Positions 14,218 through 27,423 of a DNA stretch of 59,317 nucleotides are shown one piece after another. A model generated the notes under the pieces. It was not told the DNA's origin and searched no databases. It saw only the letters and a list, made by a program, of their open reading frames with translations. Position numbers and translations under genes: made by a program. The DNA is from Flavobacteriaceae bacterium (GTDB taxonomy: Bacteria; Bacteroidota; Bacteroidia; Flavobacteriales; Flavobacteriaceae). The stretch is from assembly GCA_947461425.1 (NCBI GenBank), contig CANHKZ010000002.1:1-59317 (forward strand), written 5' to 3'. Numbering within the stretch: position 1 is the stretch's first letter; every line of letters starts with the position of its first letter.

Positions 14218-14988
14218 TTATTTTAAACAAACTGGGATAATTTCGCCAGAAGCCAAACAAAATTTTGTTACTAATTCAGGACTTATTTTTTTGGTGTAAT
14301 CTTCTTCAATTACAGTAAATCCTATACTTCGTAATTTATCAAAATAATCACGTCCATACACTCTGACGTGATCGTATTGTCCGAAAATTTCAGCACGTTC
14401 TTTTTCGTCAGTTATAGAATCATCAGAATAAGTAGCGGCTCTGTTCAAGTCCTGTGGAATTTGAAGAACGGCCATTCCTCCGGGTTTTAAAACGCGATAT
14501 AATTCTTGCATAGCTTTAGTATCATCTGGAATGTGTTCCAAGACGTGGTTGCAAAGGATCATGTCATATTGATTGTCTTTAAAAGGCAAGTTGCAAATAT
14601 CCGCTTTTACATCAGCTAAAGGTGAAAATAAATCGGTAGTTGTGTATTGAATATTTTTTTGCTTTTTAAAACGCTTATAAAATTCTTGTTCTGGGGCAAA
14701 ATGCAACACGTTTTTTTTCTCTTTTGCAGTAAAAAAATCCGTTTCATTTTGTAAATACAACCATAATAAACGATGTCTTTCTAATGAAAGTGTACTTGGA
14801 GAAAGCACGTTGTTTCTTTGGGTACCATAGCCATAGGGTAAAAACATTCGGAAACTTTTCCCATCAATAGGATCAGTAAATGTATTTCCTTTTAATAAAA
14901 AAGCTAAAATAGGTTGTGCCACAATACTTAGCCGAATTAAGATAGGGCGAGGTATGGTATTAAGAATGAATTTGAATAGTTTTTTCAT
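14218..14988 (-). CDS. Class I SAM-dependent methyltransferase
   Basis: VLHFAPEQEFYKRF, CNHVLEHIPDDTKAMQELYRVLKPGG. Confidence 0.88.
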   Translation of the reverse strand: MKKLFKFILNTIPRPILIRLSIVAQPILAFLLKGNTFTDPIDGKSFRMFLPYGYGTQRNNVLSPSTLSLERHRLLWLYLQNETDFFTAKEKKNVLHFAPEQEFYKRFKKQKNIQYTTTDLFSPLADVKADICNLPFKDNQYDMILCNHVLEHIPDDTKAMQELYRVLKPGGMAVLQIPQDLNRAATYSDDSITDEKERAEIFGQYDHVRVYGRDYFDKLRSIGFTVIEEDYTKKISPELVTKFCLASGEIIPVCLK

Positions 14989-15806
14989 TATATATTTAAT
15001 GGATTTTGTCTAAACTCATCTTCCTCATTACTCACAATACCCATAGCATCATAGATGTATTTGAAAGTCGAAAGCAATTCGGGTTTTCCGTCTACAAGTG
15101 CAACATCGTGTTCAAAATGCGCTGAAGGCTTATTATCAGCCGTGGTAATTGTCCAACCGTCTTTGTGTTGTTTGATATTCTTGGTGCCGAGATTAATCAT
15201 CGGTTCAATAGCCACTACCATTCCTTCTACAAATAATTTTCCACGGCCTTTTTTACCATAGTTGGGCATTTCAGGTTCTTCATGCATTTTTTCACCTAAT
15301 CCATGACCCACTAATTCACGAACCACTCCATAGCCATGCGCTTCAGTATATTTTTGAATTGCATTTCCCACATCTTCCACGCGATTCCCTGCTTTAAATT
15401 CGCGAATTCCTACATAAAGGGATTCTTTAGTAATTTGAAGTAATTTTTTGGTTTCAGGAGCTACTTCGCCTATTTCAAATGTGTAGGCGTGATCGCCGTG
15501 AAAACCATTTTTAAAAGCACCACAATCTACCGAAATAATATCGCCACTTTGCAATGGGGTATTGTTTGGAATACCATGAACAACTTGAGTGTTTGGACTC
15601 ATGCAAAGTGAGTTAGGGAATCCATATAATCCTAAAAAACTGGGTAAAGCTCCATGATCTCTGATAAATTCTTCAGCTAGTTTGTCTAGATATAAAGTGG
15701 TTACCCCTTCTTTGATTTCAGAGGCAATCATTCCTAAGGTTTTAGATACAATTAAGGCACTTTCCCGCATTAATTCTATTTGTTCCTTTGATTTAACTAT
15801 AATCAT
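14988..15806 (-). CDS. map: Methionine aminopeptidase type I
   Basis: SVDCGAFKNGFHGDHAYTFEIG, GHGLGEKMHEEPEMPNYG, GMVVAIEPM. Confidence 0.95.
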   Translation of the reverse strand: MIIVKSKEQIELMRESALIVSKTLGMIASEIKEGVTTLYLDKLAEEFIRDHGALPSFLGLYGFPNSLCMSPNTQVVHGIPNNTPLQSGDIISVDCGAFKNGFHGDHAYTFEIGEVAPETKKLLQITKESLYVGIREFKAGNRVEDVGNAIQKYTEAHGYGVVRELVGHGLGEKMHEEPEMPNYGKKGRGKLFVEGMVVAIEPMINLGTKNIKQHKDGWTITTADNKPSAHFEHDVALVDGKPELLSTFKYIYDAMGIVSNEEDEFRQNPLNI

Positions 15807-15838: not shown

Positions 15839-17227
15839 TTAATCCGGATTTGCCATTATCCTAAATAATTCAGCATTTGAGTTATAAAAACGATTTTCTA
15901 GATTTAATTGCGATAGTTGTGCAATGACTAAATTATTTTCTCTTGTATTTAAAAGAAAAATAGAGCTCTCGCCAAAAGAAAATAATCGTTCTTCAGATCG
16001 AAGCATTATACTATTATCTTTTACTAAGTCAGTGATAATTTTCCGTTGTCTATCAATTGATTTTATTTCTGTTTGTTGTGCATTTATTTTGTTCTTGAGT
16101 TGAACTCTTTCTAGTTCTAGAGACAGTTTTGCATCCTGAATTTTGAATTTTGCTATTTGTAAAGCACCTCTTTCTTTTCTCAGAAAAATGGGAAAGTTAA
16201 AATTCATTCCTATCTTATAATTATTAAAATTAGTAGAATTCCAATAATTAGGTTCTGATAAATAATGATAACCAAGGTCAATTTTTGGTAATAAACTGTT
16301 TGCTTTTAACTTTCTTTCTACTTCTAAAATATCAAGTTTGTTTTGGATAGCGTTTATTTTTGGATGATTTTCAATTGAAATCGTACTAACTAAAAGCTCA
16401 TTAATTTTTAATGTTTCTTCTATAGATTTATCAAGATTAAATTCAGGAATAATAATATCTTGTAATTCAAATGGAATGTTATTATCTAGCCATAAATAGT
16501 TTGACAATTCTAATTTTGCTTTGATTAATTTTAATTGTGATTCTTCAAGGTTTAATTTTCTATTTTTTAAAACAATTCCTGCCTCAACGCTATCAATTTG
16601 AGGTTTGTCTCCATTTTGAATTAAACTTGTAATTCCTTTAAATCTAATTTCAGCATTATTTAAATATTCTCTATAAAGTTGTACTTCATTGTAATTTCTT
16701 TTCCAGTTGAAATAGGCTAATGAAGCATTGTAAAGCACTTCAATTGCTTGGAGTCTTCTTTCAGCTTGACTTAATTGAATTTGAATTTTTGCTTTTCTTA
16801 GGTCAGCCATTCTCTGGTTAATAAACAATCCTTGTCCCAAAGGGATGTTGATGCCTAAAGAAGTTAATCCCTGATTTGGTAAAACATGCTCTGGATTTAC
16901 AAATATACCTTCGCTATTATCAAAACCTGCTTTTATTTCAATTCCATACCAAGTAGGAATTTTAAAACTACTATTTAAAATTGAAAAATAGTCCTGGTCT
17001 TTGTATTGTTTTTTATCAAAATCAACTTCAATTTTTGGGTCAAACCCGCCTCTTGCCATCATTAAATTAGCTTGAGCCATGTTAATTTCAAGATTAGCAC
17101 TTTTAGCCAATGGATGAAATTTTTTTACATAGCCTAAGAATTCATTATAGCTAAGTTCTTTCAAGTTTTGATCTTGTGCCCATCCAATATTTGCGGTTAG
17201 GAATAAGATTAAAATTAATTGTTTCAT
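15839..17227 (-). CDS. TolC family outer membrane efflux protein
   Basis: Signal peptide, long coiled-coil repeats, position next to HlyD and ABC genes. Confidence 0.88.
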   Translation of the reverse strand: MKQLILILFLTANIGWAQDQNLKELSYNEFLGYVKKFHPLAKSANLEINMAQANLMMARGGFDPKIEVDFDKKQYKDQDYFSILNSSFKIPTWYGIEIKAGFDNSEGIFVNPEHVLPNQGLTSLGINIPLGQGLFINQRMADLRKAKIQIQLSQAERRLQAIEVLYNASLAYFNWKRNYNEVQLYREYLNNAEIRFKGITSLIQNGDKPQIDSVEAGIVLKNRKLNLEESQLKLIKAKLELSNYLWLDNNIPFELQDIIIPEFNLDKSIEETLKINELLVSTISIENHPKINAIQNKLDILEVERKLKANSLLPKIDLGYHYLSEPNYWNSTNFNNYKIGMNFNFPIFLRKERGALQIAKFKIQDAKLSLELERVQLKNKINAQQTEIKSIDRQRKIITDLVKDNSIMLRSEERLFSFGESSIFLLNTRENNLVIAQLSQLNLENRFYNSNAELFRIMANPD

Positions 17228-17239
17228 GTATATGAAATT

Positions 17240-18586
17240 TTATTTTTTATCTTTTGTGTTTCCCTCTTTGGGTTGGTAATAATTAGGTGGAAATCCATTT
17301 AATTGTCGCCATAATTCAAACCAAATAGGCACATTATCTAATAAAGCTAGAGTTTGAGCCCCAGAACCCATACTAATCTGTTTTGGCCAAGCCTCTTCTT
17401 CTTGGTCTGGAGCAATTAAAACTCTAAATTTTCCATTTGTACTAATAAAATTTTCCACCGCTACAATTTTCCCGCCAAAAGTTCCATAACTTAAGTTAGG
17501 CCACCCAGAGAAAACTATGGTTGGCCATCCATCAAACCAAATACGTACTTTTTCACCTTTGTGAACTAATGGTAAATCATTCGGACTTACAAACGTTTCT
17601 ACTGCGATATCATATTTTGAAGGCATGATACTTACAATTTGAGTTCCTTCTTTGATGATTTCTCCTAGACCAGATTGAATTGCTCTGTTGACATACCCAC
17701 TTTGTGGTGCTTTAATAAAGTACATTTCATTACGAATCGTATAATTTACATATTGATTTTGAAGCTTATTTACTTGAGCTTCTGTATCATATTGATTACT
17801 TAATGCTGTAAATTGATCACTTCTTGCCTTTGAACCTTTTTCAGTATATTCAGCAATAATTCTATTTATTTCCACCTTAGTATTGATAAACTCATTTTTG
17901 CTTGTGAGTAATTTATTTTCTTGTGTTATAATTTTAGCTTCCGCTTCTTGTAATTTCAATCTTTTTTCTTCCACATCAGTTAAGGGTTTCAAACCCTCTT
18001 TATTCAGTGTTACAGAACGATTAAACTGGGTTATGGCAATTTTTATTTGGGTTTTAACTGCTTCTAAATCCATGCTGTCACTTTTTACTTTTAAAAGTGA
18101 TTGACGAATTTTATTTTTTGCTTGTTCTAGTTTTAGTTTTTTTTCATTTTCAATAGCATCAATTTGGCTTGTAAGGACATTTACCTTTCCATCATATGAT
18201 GACATCGCCATTTTTTTTGCGTCTACTTGATTTTTGATATTTTTTATCAAATTAGGATCAATGTAGTCTTCTTTTATCTCAGAAATAAATAAAATTGTAT
18301 CTCCTTTTTTAACATAGTCACCCTCTTTTACATACCATTTTTCGATTCTACCAGCAATAGCTGAATGAATAGTTTGTGGTCTTTGATCCGGTTTCAATGT
18401 AGTTACTGCTCCTGAACCCGAAATGTTCTGAGTCCAAGGAAGGAATAGAATTACTAATCCTATTAATGAGACATACAAAATTATTTTGTTTAGTATTTTA
18501 TAATGTGGACGATTAGCCAAATTTTTAACTGTACTAAACTGGTCGATATTTTCCTCTATTGGATTTTTTTTAGAAATATTAAGCAT
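17240..18586 (-). CDS. HlyD family secretion/periplasmic adaptor protein
   Basis: Single N-terminal TM, biotinyl-lipoyl-like segment (IAGRIEKWYVKEGDYVKKGDTILFI), coiled-coil hairpin. Confidence 0.9.
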   Translation of the reverse strand: MLNISKKNPIEENIDQFSTVKNLANRPHYKILNKIILYVSLIGLVILFLPWTQNISGSGAVTTLKPDQRPQTIHSAIAGRIEKWYVKEGDYVKKGDTILFISEIKEDYIDPNLIKNIKNQVDAKKMAMSSYDGKVNVLTSQIDAIENEKKLKLEQAKNKIRQSLLKVKSDSMDLEAVKTQIKIAITQFNRSVTLNKEGLKPLTDVEEKRLKLQEAEAKIITQENKLLTSKNEFINTKVEINRIIAEYTEKGSKARSDQFTALSNQYDTEAQVNKLQNQYVNYTIRNEMYFIKAPQSGYVNRAIQSGLGEIIKEGTQIVSIMPSKYDIAVETFVSPNDLPLVHKGEKVRIWFDGWPTIVFSGWPNLSYGTFGGKIVAVENFISTNGKFRVLIAPDQEEEAWPKQISMGSGAQTLALLDNVPIWFELWRQLNGFPPNYYQPKEGNTKDKK

Positions 18587-18591
18587 AGATA

Positions 18592-20256
18592 TTATTTTTT
18601 CGAATCATTAATTATTTTACCATCTTCCATTGTAATCTTTCTAGAGCATTTTTTTTGCCAATAGTTATTTTTTGAAGATATAATAATGGTCCATTTGTTA
18701 GCTGAATCAGTTAAAAAGTCTATAATTTCATGAGTAGCTTTCTCATCCATTTTGTCTAACGGATCCTCTAAAAATAAAATTTTAGGTTTGTTAATTATAC
18801 TTCTCGCTAATAATATTTTTTGGGCATTTGATGACGATAGTTGTCTACCATCAGGATAAATTCTAGTTTCTAAACCTTCAGGTAAAGTTTTTATAAAAGA
18901 ATCCAATTTCACGCATTCAATTGCCCATTTTATATCTTCATTTGATATATCGGGGTTGTTTAGTGTTATGTTATCTAAAATACTACCATCAAAAGGAGTT
19001 TCTCCCTGAGTGATTATACTTATCTGAGAACGATAGTGATTTAGATCAATTTTTCGGTAGGTATCATCGTTGATAAAAATAGATCCAGATGTTGGCTCCA
19101 TTATGCCGGATAAAATTCTCATAAGAGTTGTTTTTCCTGACCCATTATTTCCTTCTAAAAATATCTTTTCTGAAGGTTCGATTAACAAATTCACATTAGA
19201 CAAAATTTCATCTGTAGAATCAGGAAATTTGAATGTAAGATTATCTGTTGTTAATGCTATATTGGTAAAACAAAAATCAGATTTTACATCATTAAATCCT
19301 TCCATTTTAAGATCAACAATCTGTCCAATTTTTTCTACAGAAGTCAATACATCATACAAGCTTTCTAATCCAACAATAATTTTCTCTACTGAGTTTATCA
19401 CCAATAAAATGATGATTTCAGCAGCAACAAATTGTCCAATGTTCATTTTCTGATTTAACACTAAAAATCCTCCAATTAATAACAAACTAGCTGTTATAAT
19501 TACTTTAAAGATGATAAGGTGTGTGTATTGTTGTTTAATTACCTTAAAATGTTTTTCTCTGTAATGAACATACTCTGCAACTAAACTATTATTTTTTTCA
19601 AGTGCAAAAGAAAAGTTTTCTTGCTTTTTGAAACTGAAATTATTTCTAGCTATTTCTTGAAGCCAACTCACCACTTTATACTTGTATTTGGATTCCTTCA
19701 TACTTGATGACAAACCTGGATAGTAGGAAAATTTGAAGATAAGATAGAGTAAAATTAACAGTAAAACTCCAAAAAAGATGAAGAAAGGATGGTAAAGGGA
19801 TAATAAAATAATACCAAATATAATTTGTAACAAAGCCGTTGAAAAATCAATTAATAGTTTTGAAGTTCCTTTTTGGATCGTTAATGTGTCAAAAAAACGA
19901 TTGGCTAATTCTGGTGGATATTGATTATAAATCTCTTCAAATTTTATTTTTGGTAAGCGATAACTAAATTCAAACGAAGAACGAACGAATATTTTTTGTT
20001 GTAAATTTTCAGTTATTCGCAATTGCATTAGGGACAAAACACCAACAAGTGCTACCCCAATAACTACAATTATTACTAATACAATCCATGAAATACTTAC
20101 TCTTCCTGCTTGGATTAAATTAATAATAGCTTGAATTCCTAAGGGCAATGAAAGACTTACTAAACCTGAAAATATGGCATAAAAAAATATTTGAGAGATA
20201 TCTTTTTTATCTACTTGTAGTAAATTATAAAATCGTTGTAATGGTGTTGGACTCAT
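18592..20256 (-). CDS. ABC transporter, fused TM + ATP-binding domain with non-canonical catalytic motifs
   Basis: TM exporter fold; Walker A GNNGSGKTT; signature LSSSNAQ; Walker B ILFLED; no canonical H-loop histidine (IIISSKNN). Confidence 0.9.
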   Translation of the reverse strand: MSPTPLQRFYNLLQVDKKDISQIFFYAIFSGLVSLSLPLGIQAIINLIQAGRVSISWIVLVIIVVIGVALVGVLSLMQLRITENLQQKIFVRSSFEFSYRLPKIKFEEIYNQYPPELANRFFDTLTIQKGTSKLLIDFSTALLQIIFGIILLSLYHPFFIFFGVLLLILLYLIFKFSYYPGLSSSMKESKYKYKVVSWLQEIARNNFSFKKQENFSFALEKNNSLVAEYVHYREKHFKVIKQQYTHLIIFKVIITASLLLIGGFLVLNQKMNIGQFVAAEIIILLVINSVEKIIVGLESLYDVLTSVEKIGQIVDLKMEGFNDVKSDFCFTNIALTTDNLTFKFPDSTDEILSNVNLLIEPSEKIFLEGNNGSGKTTLMRILSGIMEPTSGSIFINDDTYRKIDLNHYRSQISIITQGETPFDGSILDNITLNNPDISNEDIKWAIECVKLDSFIKTLPEGLETRIYPDGRQLSSSNAQKILLARSIINKPKILFLEDPLDKMDEKATHEIIDFLTDSANKWTIIISSKNNYWQKKCSRKITMEDGKIINDSKK

Positions 20257-20262
20257 AATTTT

Positions 20263-20934
20263 TTATTTTAATGTTTTTTCAACTAAATCAATGTAAAAAT
20301 CAGTAACAGTTTTGTTATCGTTGCAATCAGTAATTGTTTTTAAATGGTCTTTTAAAAATTGTTGATGAAGCGCTCCCTCCACAATAGATGAAGCAAGACT
20401 CTTTTTGAATTCATAGCTCGGTTTTACTTCATTTATTATATCGATAATACGATTAATGATTCGTTTATACACTAAAAAAAAACCTTCTTTATTTTCTTCA
20501 TCAACCTCTTTAGTTAGTAAAGTCTTAGTGAATTCTTGAATGATAATTTTATTTAATATTGATTCATTTATATGCAAAGTGGTAGTGTCATCCTCTACTT
20601 TTTCTGTTACAACTTTGATTGCTTTTTTGAGTTTTTCCATAGAATTTTCAATGTTGCTAGTACTAAATACTAATTTATATTCTATCCATCCCCAATACCA
20701 AGATGATAAATACAACATTAGTTTGTGTTTGCTTTCAAAATAACGATATATGGAACTCTCATTAGAGTTTATTTTTTCACCTAACTTTTTAAAGGTGAAG
20801 TTTTCAAAACCAATTTCGTCGATTAACACTATACTTTGTTCAATAATTTTCTTTCCAAGTTCAGATGTCTCGGGATTTTTTACGTATAATTTGTTATTAA
20901 CGGAAATGATTATATTTGAAAGTATACTCTGCAT
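20263..20934 (-). CDS. TetR/AcrR family transcriptional regulator
   Basis: ENFTFKKLGEKINSNESSIYRYFESKHKLMLYL helix-turn-helix. Confidence 0.88.
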   Translation of the reverse strand: MQSILSNIIISVNNKLYVKNPETSELGKKIIEQSIVLIDEIGFENFTFKKLGEKINSNESSIYRYFESKHKLMLYLSSWYWGWIEYKLVFSTSNIENSMEKLKKAIKVVTEKVEDDTTTLHINESILNKIIIQEFTKTLLTKEVDEENKEGFFLVYKRIINRIIDIINEVKPSYEFKKSLASSIVEGALHQQFLKDHLKTITDCNDNKTVTDFYIDLVEKTLK

Positions 20935-20936
20935 AA

Positions 20937-21647
20937 TTAGTCGTGTATTACTGGTGAAAAATCATTTTTATTTGTCAAATCCAGGTTGTAAAGTACTGCT
21001 ATATTTAGAAAATCTCTACCTGTTTCGTCATTTATTTTATAATCAAATTGATGGATGTAGCCTGATTGCACTGCAATTTTATTGGTTAATTCATATCCAA
21101 TACCTAAGAAAATTCGGTTTCTTTCAAAGTAAGGTTCGTTATCTGTAAAAAAAATCTCATTCCAAGCTGTAAAATAATAGGTTTTTGGAATAATTTTTTT
21201 GTTGTTAATTGGAATTACTGTTCCTATTCTATATCTAAATCTATTTCTAAAACCATTTGACGTAAAACGTTGTTCAGCTCGATATCGATGTTCTATGGTG
21301 GCTAAGCGAAATTCATTTTTTAAATTCAATTGTAACCAACTTCGAACTTCACTATTTTGCATGGGCAACTCAAAATTTCCTCCTTCGCTATAGGTATTGT
21401 ATGAACCAAGTCCAGTAGTCATTGCAAAATTATTATTTAATTTATAGGAGACTCCTCCTTTGTACTCATAGTAATGAAATTGATTATAGAAAGACAAGCT
21501 CCTTAACTGGGTTTCAAAAAACACATTCCATTTAGGGCTAGTTTTGAATGTAAAATTTAACACATTCCAACTCCCAAGTTCATTTTGAGAGTGGATTGTT
21601 CCAAAAACCATAACAAATAAAAGAGAAATGTATCCTTTCAATTTCAT
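20937..21647 (-). CDS. DUF2490 family outer-membrane barrel-like protein
   Basis: Signal peptide; ELGSWNVLNFTFKTSPKWNVFFETQLR, RYRAEQRF, YFTAWNEIFF typical of DUF2490. Confidence 0.8.
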   Translation of the reverse strand: MKLKGYISLLFVMVFGTIHSQNELGSWNVLNFTFKTSPKWNVFFETQLRSLSFYNQFHYYEYKGGVSYKLNNNFAMTTGLGSYNTYSEGGNFELPMQNSEVRSWLQLNLKNEFRLATIEHRYRAEQRFTSNGFRNRFRYRIGTVIPINNKKIIPKTYYFTAWNEIFFTDNEPYFERNRIFLGIGYELTNKIAVQSGYIHQFDYKINDETGRDFLNIAVLYNLDLTNKNDFSPVIHD

Positions 21648-21654
21648 AAACTGA

Positions 21655-22350
21655 TTATTCTTTTTTTGGTGTTGTTTTCATTTGAATTATGTCTACTACA
21701 AATGCAAATGCCATTGAAAAATATATATATCCTTTCGGTATTTCAAAATGCAAACCTTCTGCTATTAAAGATACTCCAATCATCATCAGGAAACATAAAG
21801 CTAAGATTTTAAAAGACGGGTGTTTGTAAATAAATTCACTAATTGGTTTTGATGCAAATAACATTATAATTACTGTTACAATTACAGCAGTGTACATTAC
21901 CCAAAGTTCATTTACCATTCCAACAGCCGTGATTATTGAATCTACTGAAAACACTAAATCTAAAAGAATTACCTCGCCAAGTAACTTGCTAAATTTTCTA
22001 ACTTTAGTATTGTTTTCTGTATTTGAGTTTGCAGCTTCTGTTTTGTGATAAATTTCTTTAGTACTTTTGTAAATTAAAAAGAGACCTCCTAGAATTAAAA
22101 TGATTCCTTTCCCTGTAAATTCGGTGTTAAGAATAGAAAATAAGGTTGTGTCAAGTTTTAAAATCCAAGAAATAAATCCTAGTAAAATCAATCTCATTAT
22201 CATAGCGAGTACCATTCCCCAATACCTTAGTTTATTTCTTTGTTCTTCAGGAAGTTTGTCAGCTAGTATAGATATAAAAATAATGTTGTCAATTCCTAGA
22301 ATTACTTCTAGTGCAATCAATGAAATTAAAGGGATTATTGCATCTAACAT
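21655..22350 (-). CDS. TerC family integral membrane protein
   Basis: ALEVILGIDNIIFISIL and VILLDLVFSVDSIITAVGMV motifs. Confidence 0.92.
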   Translation of the reverse strand: MLDAIIPLISLIALEVILGIDNIIFISILADKLPEEQRNKLRYWGMVLAMIMRLILLGFISWILKLDTTLFSILNTEFTGKGIILILGGLFLIYKSTKEIYHKTEAANSNTENNTKVRKFSKLLGEVILLDLVFSVDSIITAVGMVNELWVMYTAVIVTVIIMLFASKPISEFIYKHPSFKILALCFLMMIGVSLIAEGLHFEIPKGYIYFSMAFAFVVDIIQMKTTPKKE

Positions 22351-22360
22351 AGTTTGTATA

Positions 22361-22993
22361 TTAAAAATTTATTTTAAAACCGAAGTTAATATTTTGAACT
22401 TCTTGAATTTCAGGTTTAATTTTATTATTACTTAAATCAAGAAATTTGAGATGATTTAATGGTTCAAGTCTTGGGATTTCTATAAATTTATTTTGGTTAA
22501 GGTATAGAAATTCCAAATTTTTAAAAAGCAACATTTCAACTGGTAGCGAGGACAGATTATCGTTTTCTAGATGTATAGATTTTAAATTGGGTAATTTTGC
22601 AAGTATCTTTAAAGTTTTTGGTAAATCCATTCTTTTTTCTTCATTTAAATAGATTTCTTCCAAATTTGTTAAATTAGAAAACTCTTCTGGCAACTGAATA
22701 AAATCGTTACCACTCAAATCTATCTGTTTTAAGCTTTTTAATTTTGTTATTTCAATGGGAATTTCTTTTAAATGATCATTTTTCAAATTAATATATTCTA
22801 AATTGATGAACTTTAACCAATCGCCTTTAGAAAGTTTAATTTTTTGGTTTTTCAAGTTCAAGCGGTATACATTTTCAGGGTTTTGTAGTGCTTCGCTAAG
22901 CGTTGTAAACTCTTTATTTCTATCTATAGTTTGGCTATACATTGTATAAGAAAAAATCAGCAGCAGTATAATTATGGATAAGATTTTTTTCAT
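22361..22993 (-). CDS. Secreted leucine-rich-repeat protein
   Basis: Signal peptide plus LRR units (LKQIDLSGNDFIQLPEEFSNLTNLEEIYLN; LEFLYLNQNKFIEIP). Confidence 0.88.
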   Translation of the reverse strand: MKKILSIIILLLIFSYTMYSQTIDRNKEFTTLSEALQNPENVYRLNLKNQKIKLSKGDWLKFINLEYINLKNDHLKEIPIEITKLKSLKQIDLSGNDFIQLPEEFSNLTNLEEIYLNEEKRMDLPKTLKILAKLPNLKSIHLENDNLSSLPVEMLLFKNLEFLYLNQNKFIEIPRLEPLNHLKFLDLSNNKIKPEIQEVQNINFGFKINF

Positions 22994-23031: not shown

Positions 23032-23039
23032 CAAATATA
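23032..23039 (-). promoter_or_regulatory. Candidate -7 element (TATATTTG) for the LRR-TerC-...-TolC unit
   Basis: caaatata on plus strand = TATATTTG on minus strand, ~39 nt upstream of the LRR ATG. Confidence 0.5.
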
Positions 23040-23054
23040 ATAGTATTACTATTA
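23038..23054. promoter_or_regulatory. Candidate operator: perfect 17-nt palindrome TAATAGTATTACTATTA
   Basis: Perfect inverted repeat (odd centre) abutting the -7 element, in the expected spacer/-33 region. Confidence 0.5.
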
Positions 23055-23084
23055 ATAATGAAATTTTAACTTTTATTTATAAAA

Positions 23085-23113
23085 AAAGCTGCTCTAATTT
23101 GAGCAGCTTTTAG
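23085..23113 (-). terminator. Terminator downstream of gpmI
   Basis: aaagctgctctaatttgagcagctttt hairpin with A/T tracts. Confidence 0.8.
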
Positions 23114-27197: not shown

Positions 27198-27423
27198 AAA
27201 ATAAGGTTTCAGTAGAATAATTACAATATAGACAACGAAGTTGAAGTAAAAAAAATTGAATAACATACATTAGTAGGTTTTTTCAATTATTTGTTACAAA
27301 AATAGCGCAACGTATTTAAGAGTAATACTGTTAAAACTTTTTTTTATGTTAAATTTATAGTAAATAACTGGATTGTAATTAATTAAGCTTTTTTTTATTC
27401 TACTTTTGTATTTCTCAAATTAA

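What the first reader, a model, noticed from the sequence alone, without database searches (positions are those of the whole stretch)
15839..22993. Seven-gene unit coupling LRR protein, TerC, DUF2490 barrel, TetR and a TolC-HlyD-ABC export system
Seven consecutive minus-strand genes are separated by only ~2-12 nt: secreted LRR, TerC, DUF2490, TetR, ABC, HlyD, TolC. TolC/HlyD/ABC form a type I secretion/efflux-like trio. TerC-family proteins are linked to metal (Mn) export and to metalation of exported proteins in Bacillus. The combination suggests a regulated envelope export system with a metal-handling step and an LRR surface/periplasmic component; I do not know this exact combination as a described system. 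The function is inference.
Basis: partly seen in the sequence, partly recalled or inferred. Interest (0 to 1): 0.68.

Follow-up and report, generated by a model that had tools for sequence, protein, structure and literature searches.

The report
TetR-controlled exporter with dead ATPase
The seven genes form one switchable operon in a freshwater Flavobacterium, and its export pump belongs to a widespread family whose ATP-burning motor has lost the residues needed to hydrolyse ATP, so how it is powered is an open question.

Summary
The seven co-directional genes are exactly where stated, 2–12 nt apart. F. ammonificans GENT11 has the same order. The conserved core is TetR-ABC-HlyD-TolC (Bacteroidota-wide). 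LRR, TerC and DUF2490 are a variable block: 15 of 55 TetR-bearing Flavobacterium loci carry such genes, none of 40 loci sampled from the wider family does. They are nevertheless part of the unit. A 17-bp palindrome, TAATAGTAWTACTATTA, fused to a -7 box, precedes the first gene whether that is TetR, LRR, TerC, DUF2490, a lipoprotein or a carbonic anhydrase (54/55 TetR loci versus 2/22 scored as lacking TetR).

The unexpected part is the ABC protein. Its "LSSSNAQ" is a ruined signature motif. Catalytic Glu and LSGGQ are gone in 86/86 clade members, the H-loop His in 85/86, while the membrane domain, HlyD and TolC stay conserved. NBD identity is 44% against 69% for the TMD; ordinary exporters from the same bacteria show 75% against 68%. 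I read this as a TetR-repressed trans-envelope conduit whose ABC subunit binds ATP as a gate or assembly part but hardly hydrolyses it, co-expressed with variable envelope-stress cargo. The regulation is well supported; loss of ATPase is inferred from sequence; substrate and energy source are unknown.

The parts
23038..23054 (-). TetR operator candidate, 17-bp palindrome TAATAGTAATACTATTA; on the minus strand it runs straight into TATTTGC, giving a Bacteroidota -7 box TATATTTG (23039-23032)
   Evidence: Exact match; 2 matches with up to 2 mismatches in the window against 0.04 expected. Conserved upstream of the first gene of the unit in 54/55 TetR loci of the genus, 31/34 of the family, and most TetR loci of a second family
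23081..23110 (-). hairpin plus T-run separating iPGM from the unit (AAAGCTGCTC-AAATTA-GAGCAGCTTT-TTTT)
   Evidence: read directly from sequence; not listed by the pattern scan
22361..22993 (-). secreted LRR protein, 210 aa; first gene of the unit here
   Evidence: Pfam LRR_8 9e-17; fast evolving, dN 0.161 to F. ammonificans
21655..22350 (-). TerC family protein, 231 aa, nearest NCBIfam model YkoY/MeeY (98 bits, below its 138.5 cut-off); second TerC of the genome
   Evidence: Pfam TerC 2e-48, TIGR03716; other copy at G000:C32
20937..21647 (-). DUF2490 outer-membrane beta-barrel, 236 aa
   Evidence: Pfam 1e-39; predicted barrel pLDDT 80, best fold hit LpxR E 4e-4, also NanC
20263..20934 (-). TetR-family repressor, presumed to bind the 23038-23054 palindrome
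   Evidence: TetR_N; presence of the gene and of the operator go together, 54/55 against 2/22
18592..20256 (-). ABC exporter, 554 aa, no N-terminal C39/CLD domain; intact Walker A but 'ED' for the Walker B/catalytic 'DE', signature LSSSNAQ for LSGGQ, H-loop SK for xH
   Evidence: fold is a type I exporter (TM287/288, PCAT1, HlyB)
17240..18586 (-). HlyD-type periplasmic adaptor, 448 aa
   Evidence: HlyD_3 1e-10, TIGR01843 2e-27
15839..17227 (-). TolC-type outer-membrane factor, 462 aa
   Evidence: OEP 5e-41
14988..15806 (-). map (methionine aminopeptidase), 32 nt downstream; housekeeping neighbour, possibly read through
   Evidence: Peptidase_M24 2e-47; syntenic boundary in most Flavobacterium loci

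Best explanation
The seven genes are one TetR-repressed transcription unit. Its conserved engine is TetR-ABC-HlyD-TolC, a trans-envelope conduit found across Bacteroidota. TetR binds a 17-bp palindrome overlapping the promoter; when an unknown ligand releases it, the conduit is made. In some Flavobacterium species the slot between operator and TetR carries cargo genes (LRR, TerC, DUF2490 barrel, carbonic anhydrase, c37 lipoprotein, Fic, small MscS) that are then induced with it, as an envelope-stress response. The ABC subunit is a former type I exporter that kept its membrane domain and usually its ATP-binding Walker A, but lost catalytic Glu, H-loop His and LSGGQ. It therefore most likely binds ATP for assembly or gating and does not pump by cycles of hydrolysis; transport would be driven by a gradient, by the substrate, or by an unidentified partner. 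Shown by sequence: operon, shared operator, motif loss with conserved TMD. Inferred: repression, ATPase deficiency, gating role, stress function.
For: Gaps of 2-12 nt and an identical order in F. ammonificans. The operator sits before the first gene whatever it is: TetR in 39 loci, LRR in 10, TerC, DUF2490 and c37 once each, carbonic anhydrase twice; 2 of 200 shuffled upstream regions had such a site. Blocks that lie away from TetR lack the operator (L180, L182). In a second family, carbonic anhydrase-LRR-DUF2490b or c37-LRR-DUF2490b is divergent from TetR-ABC, and LRR is divergent from a stand-alone TetR, with operators near TetR. Motifs: 0/86 clade members keep the DE pair while 10/10 outgroup relatives do, and the split has 100% support on a TMD-only tree; 15 further phylum members and the second family agree. 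TMD/NBD identity is 69/44% against 68/75% in ordinary exporters. Purifying selection persists, NBD dN/dS about 0.09. The fold is a type I exporter.
Against: No expression, binding or ATPase data exist here. Walker A is intact in most members and the NBD is under purifying selection, so some nucleotide chemistry may remain. A non-canonical NBD can still hydrolyse slowly, and Asp/Glu at the Walker B positions could partly substitute. The cargo block is patchy (at least 10 gains or losses on the ABC tree), so its functional tie may be regulatory only. TetR and its operator are missing in F. johnsoniae-type loci that keep ABC-HlyD-TolC, so the repressor is not essential to the conduit. That TetR recognises the palindrome is deduced from co-occurrence.
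Confidence: 0.62

Rival explanations
1. An ordinary TetR-regulated tripartite efflux or type I secretion pump whose NBD is unusual in sequence but still hydrolyses ATP, as a homodimer with alternative catalytic residues.
For: Walker A kept in 81/86; NBD under purifying selection; complete HlyD and TolC partners; exporter fold.
Against: Catalytic Glu and LSGGQ absent in 86/86, H-loop His in 85/86, and the replacements vary freely between lineages; the NBD is the least constrained part; some members lost Walker A as well while the operon survives.
Confidence: 0.25
2. The protein is the degenerate half of a heterodimeric exporter and works with a catalytically normal ABC encoded elsewhere.
For: Degenerate-site heterodimers such as TmrAB and TM287/288 exist and are among the closest folds (PMC8277102).
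Against: No second ABC of this family in most genomes: after the orthologue the next hits fall from about E 1e-180 to about 1e-30; no partner gene in the operon. In known heterodimers one subunit keeps LSGGQ for the active site, whereas this one has lost it, so both composite sites would be impaired (established knowledge).
Confidence: 0.1
3. LRR, TerC and DUF2490 are chance neighbours that landed in a slot between iPGM and TetR, with no functional tie.
For: Absent from the unit in 40 loci sampled across Flavobacteriaceae; patchy within the genus; the slot also receives unrelated genes such as an acetyl-CoA hydrolase-like gene in reverse orientation.
Against: They sit downstream of the TetR operator and a few nt from TetR; close TerC orthologues lie next to TetR in 10 of 12 genomes, one of them at a different chromosomal site (L181); LRR and DUF2490b recur with TetR and operator in another family.
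Confidence: 0.15

Closest known systems
HlyB-HlyD-TolC type I secretion system
   Same: Same three components in one operon, type I ABC exporter fold (8dck, 7sgr among fold hits); best family model is a type I secretion permease/ATPase (TIGR03375, below cut-off)
   Different: No C39/CLD domain, no adjacent substrate gene, NBD lacks catalytic Glu, H-loop His and LSGGQ, TetR repressor at the front
Heterodimeric exporters with one degenerate site (TM287/288, TmrAB, BmrCD)
   Same: Fold; Walker B and H-loop changes resemble their degenerate site
   Different: Here only one ABC gene per system, and the signature is lost in the same chain; no canonical partner found
TetR-family local repressors of tripartite pumps (AcrR-AcrAB-TolC type; own knowledge)
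   Same: Repressor gene beside pump genes, palindromic operator overlapping the promoter
   Different: ABC-type instead of RND inner-membrane protein, cargo genes between operator and repressor gene, operator conserved across two families
TerC proteins MeeY/YkoY of Bacillus subtilis and the pump SwrC (PMC12096827, PMC10550928)
   Same: TerC protein beside an export pump; MeeY enables surfactin export through SwrC
   Different: Gram-negative ABC/HlyD/TolC setting, no surfactin, TerC present in few species; model score below the YkoY cut-off
DUF2490 putative porin family TC 1.B.81 (PMC4827864)
   Same: Pfam match and predicted small outer-membrane barrel
   Different: Function not established there either; here recurrently linked to TetR operator, LRR and carbonic anhydrase

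Membership tests
Type I secretion system | ABC + HlyD adaptor + TolC in one operon | tested here: met
Type I secretion system | ABC with functional ATPase motifs (Walker A/B, catalytic Glu, H-loop, LSGGQ) | tested here: not met
   only Walker A is intact
Type I secretion system | linked secreted substrate (RTX or GG-leader protein) | tested here: not met
   no constant neighbour beyond TetR/HlyD/TolC in 40 + 80 loci; an unlinked substrate is not excluded
Type I secretion system | exports a protein or peptide in one step | not testable with these tools
   needs secretome or transport assay
Heterodimeric degenerate-site ABC exporter | paired canonical ABC subunit of the same family | tested here: not met
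   no close second copy, none in operon
Type I ABC exporter superfamily | six-helix TMD plus NBD fold | tested here: met
   model pLDDT 78, top hits TM287/288, PCAT1, TmrAB, PrtD, HlyB at TM 0.58-0.78
TetR local repressor with palindromic operator | TetR HTH domain and conserved palindrome at the promoter of its own unit | tested here: met
   54/55 TetR loci against 2/22
TetR local repressor with palindromic operator | protein binds the palindrome and is released by a ligand | not testable with these tools
   needs EMSA and inducer screen
TerC YkoY/MeeY subfamily | score above the YkoY model cut-off | tested here: not met
   98 bits against 138.5; the general TerC Pfam domain is met
DUF2490 | Pfam PF10677 above gathering score | tested here: met
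   136.7 bits against 29.8

The most novel reading that the evidence does not exclude
A phylum-wide family of trans-envelope ABC-HlyD-TolC assemblies has abandoned ATP hydrolysis and works as an ATP-gated or ATP-independent channel (comparable to CFTR among ABC proteins), used as a chassis onto whose TetR-controlled promoter different species load different envelope-stress genes.
Probability: 0.4. Interest if true: 0.85.

Novelty: new variant of a known kind. Interest (0 to 1): 0.64.

Why it matters
ABC exporters are defined by ATP-driven transport. A family present in roughly half or more of Flavobacteriaceae (and in 63 of 248 sampled genomes of the phylum, counting canonical relatives) that conserves the membrane path, adaptor and outer-membrane channel but has lost the hydrolysis residues would be either a non-pumping ABC conduit or a pump powered in an undescribed way. 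The conserved operator gives a direct handle: it makes induction, inducer identity and substrate testable. It also ties poorly understood families (DUF2490, a TerC paralogue, secreted LRR, periplasmic carbonic anhydrase) to one regulator.

Tried and rejected
1) A wider regulon from the palindrome: at up to 2 mismatches, 12 genomes gave no more sites than the reversed control pattern, and the second window site at 27317 is not conserved in relatives, so it was rejected. 2) TerC as an obligatory part: only 3 of 300 other family genomes carry a close relative, none beside export genes. 3) Neutral decay of the ABC NBD: rejected, because ORFs are intact, dN/dS is about 0.09, and LSSSNAQ-type motifs are held across many Flavobacterium species. 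4) Literature on ATPase-dead Bacteroidota exporters: nothing found with the terms tried; absence in an open-access library is weak evidence. 5) DUF2490 function by fold: only a general barrel match. 6) Sigma-70 promoter scan: uninformative, 74 found against 66 by chance.
Full report
OBSERVATION. The window lies in a Flavobacterium genome; the nearest named relative by the ABC protein is F. ammonificans GENT11, 95% identical. GENT11 carries the same seven genes in the same order.

In 151 Flavobacteriaceae genomes the ABC protein has a sharply separated orthologue group (44-63% identity; next hits about 24%). In 40 loci from that search, ABC-HlyD-TolC are contiguous, TetR precedes them in 34, and none has LRR, TerC or DUF2490 in the unit. 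Within Flavobacterium the unit usually lies between iPGM and map, and a variable block occurs directly upstream of TetR. The fullest form is lipoprotein c37-DUF2490b-Fic-small MscS-LRR-TerC-DUF2490a (L164/L273; domains). Other forms are LRR-TerC-DUF2490a (window), LRR-TerC, LRR alone, TerC alone, DUF2490a alone, and carbonic anhydrase-DUF2490b with LRR. In total 15 of 55 TetR-bearing named loci have at least one such gene; presence needs at least 10 changes on the ABC tree. Close TerC orthologues (74% or more) are next to TetR in 10 of 12 genomes, once at a different chromosomal site (L181). Outside the genus close TerC relatives are rare and not linked.

OPERATOR. Upstream of LRR in the window is TAATAGTAATACTATTA (23038-23054), fused to TATTTGC so that a Bacteroidota -7 box (TAnnTTTG; own knowledge) overlaps its end. 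The same palindrome plus box lies mostly 15-60 nt upstream of the first gene of the unit in other species, whichever gene that is: TetR 39, LRR 10, and TerC, DUF2490a and c37 once each; two more sites precede carbonic anhydrase. 54 of 55 TetR-bearing loci have a site with at most 2 mismatches, against 2 of 22 loci scored as lacking TetR; one of those two (L331) still has a TetR reading frame by the site, and the other (L292) retains a site in the iPGM-ABC gap. Shuffled upstream sequence gives 2 of 200. Some loci carry a second site in front of LRR (L273, L276, L301). Blocks located away from TetR (L180, L182) have no site. In the wider family 31 of 34 TetR loci have it. In a second family of the same order it occurs at most TetR-ABC loci and not where TetR is replaced; there carbonic anhydrase-LRR-DUF2490b (G431) or c37-LRR-DUF2490b (G761) is divergent from TetR-ABC, and in G661 an LRR gene is divergent from a stand-alone TetR homologue with a 3-mismatch site nearby. 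LRR, DUF2490b, carbonic anhydrase and c37 are thus repeatedly placed under this regulator; TerC and DUF2490a only within Flavobacterium. Genome-wide, the pattern at 2 mismatches is not above the control, so I claim no further regulon.

THE ABC PROTEIN. The window protein has Walker A GNNGSGKTT, but 'LFLEDPLD' where DE is expected, LSSSNAQ for LSGGQ, and SSKN where AH(R) is expected. Across 86 members of the clade no sequence has the DE pair or an LSGGQ-like signature, and one (L042) has a His at the H-loop; five lack an intact Walker A (L068-L071, L246). Ten more distant relatives (L234-L243; eight of them 716-832 aa, the others 692 and 583 aa) keep DE in 10/10 and the H-loop His in 9/10; the two groups are separated with 100% support on a tree made from TMD columns only. 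Fifteen further phylum members and the sequences from the second family agree. Conservation is inverted: TMD 69%, NBD 44% mean pairwise identity in 41 family sequences (112/316 against 17/218 near-invariant columns), compared with 68% and 75% in 20 ordinary exporters from the same bacteria. Between the window and F. ammonificans dN/dS is about 0.04 for TMD and 0.09 for NBD, so the NBD is constrained and not a pseudogene. AlphaFold gives a type I exporter fold, with TM287/288, PCAT1, TmrAB, PrtD and HlyB as nearest solved structures. No second close family member was seen in the family genomes to supply a canonical partner. Because the signature is lost in the same chain, a heterodimer with a normal ABC would also have both composite sites impaired (established knowledge of NBD dimers).

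MECHANISM. Shown by sequence: one tightly spaced unit with its own promoter-operator; operator and TetR gene co-occurring; loss of hydrolysis motifs with conservation of TMD, HlyD and TolC. Inferred: TetR represses the unit; the ABC protein binds ATP for assembly or gating and does not pump by hydrolysis; cargo genes serve envelope, ion or pH stress. TerC could help an exporter as MeeY does for SwrC in B. subtilis (PMC12096827), but in most species the system exists without TerC.

KNOWN OR NOT. Each component family is known. I found no description of this TetR-ABC-HlyD-TolC family, of its ATPase-motif loss, or of the operator in the open-access library. DUF2490 is listed only as a putative porin family of unknown function (PMC4827864). 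I file it as a new variant of a known kind: it is built like a type I secretion/tripartite exporter but fails a defining test of one, functional ATPase motifs.

LIMITS. No experiment supports binding, expression or transport. The TetR-operator pairing rests on co-occurrence. Genome samples are one per species. ORFs in relatives were called mechanically, so some TetR starts are misplaced.

Noticed in passing
L344:7488-7892 (F. johnsoniae) and L328-L350: In F. johnsoniae-type species TetR and its operator are gone and a 129-151 aa small protein precedes ABC-HlyD-TolC about 100 nt upstream.
   Followed up: partly
L369 (G661), operator at 2191: An LRR gene divergent from a stand-alone TetR homologue with a variant of the same palindrome (3 mismatches), unlinked to the ABC operon of that genome.
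   Followed up: partly
L168:11789-12541 (-): ORF that looks like a deletion fusion: N-terminus of a periplasmic carbonic anhydrase joined to a DUF2490 barrel.
   Followed up: no
L314:7034-7219 and L316:7114-7299: 62-aa LRR remnants upstream of TetR, apparently decaying cargo genes.
   Followed up: no
L182 (G157:C12) and L180 (G235:C63): The cargo block (with TerC and DUF2490) away from the ABC unit, without the operator.
   Followed up: partly
27317-27333: Second operator-like palindrome (2 mismatches) in a divergent intergenic region; not conserved in relatives, so probably chance.
   Followed up: yes
L164:3840-5114, L277:5908-7230, L302:4399-5673: An acetyl-CoA hydrolase/transferase-like gene in reverse orientation sits either between iPGM and TetR or between TolC and map in many species, marking the locus as an insertion hot spot.
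   Followed up: no
L234-L242: More distant relatives of the ABC protein, 692-832 aa, have extra N-terminal sequence without a Pfam match but keep the canonical Walker B/catalytic DE; likely the ancestral NBD state.
   Followed up: partly
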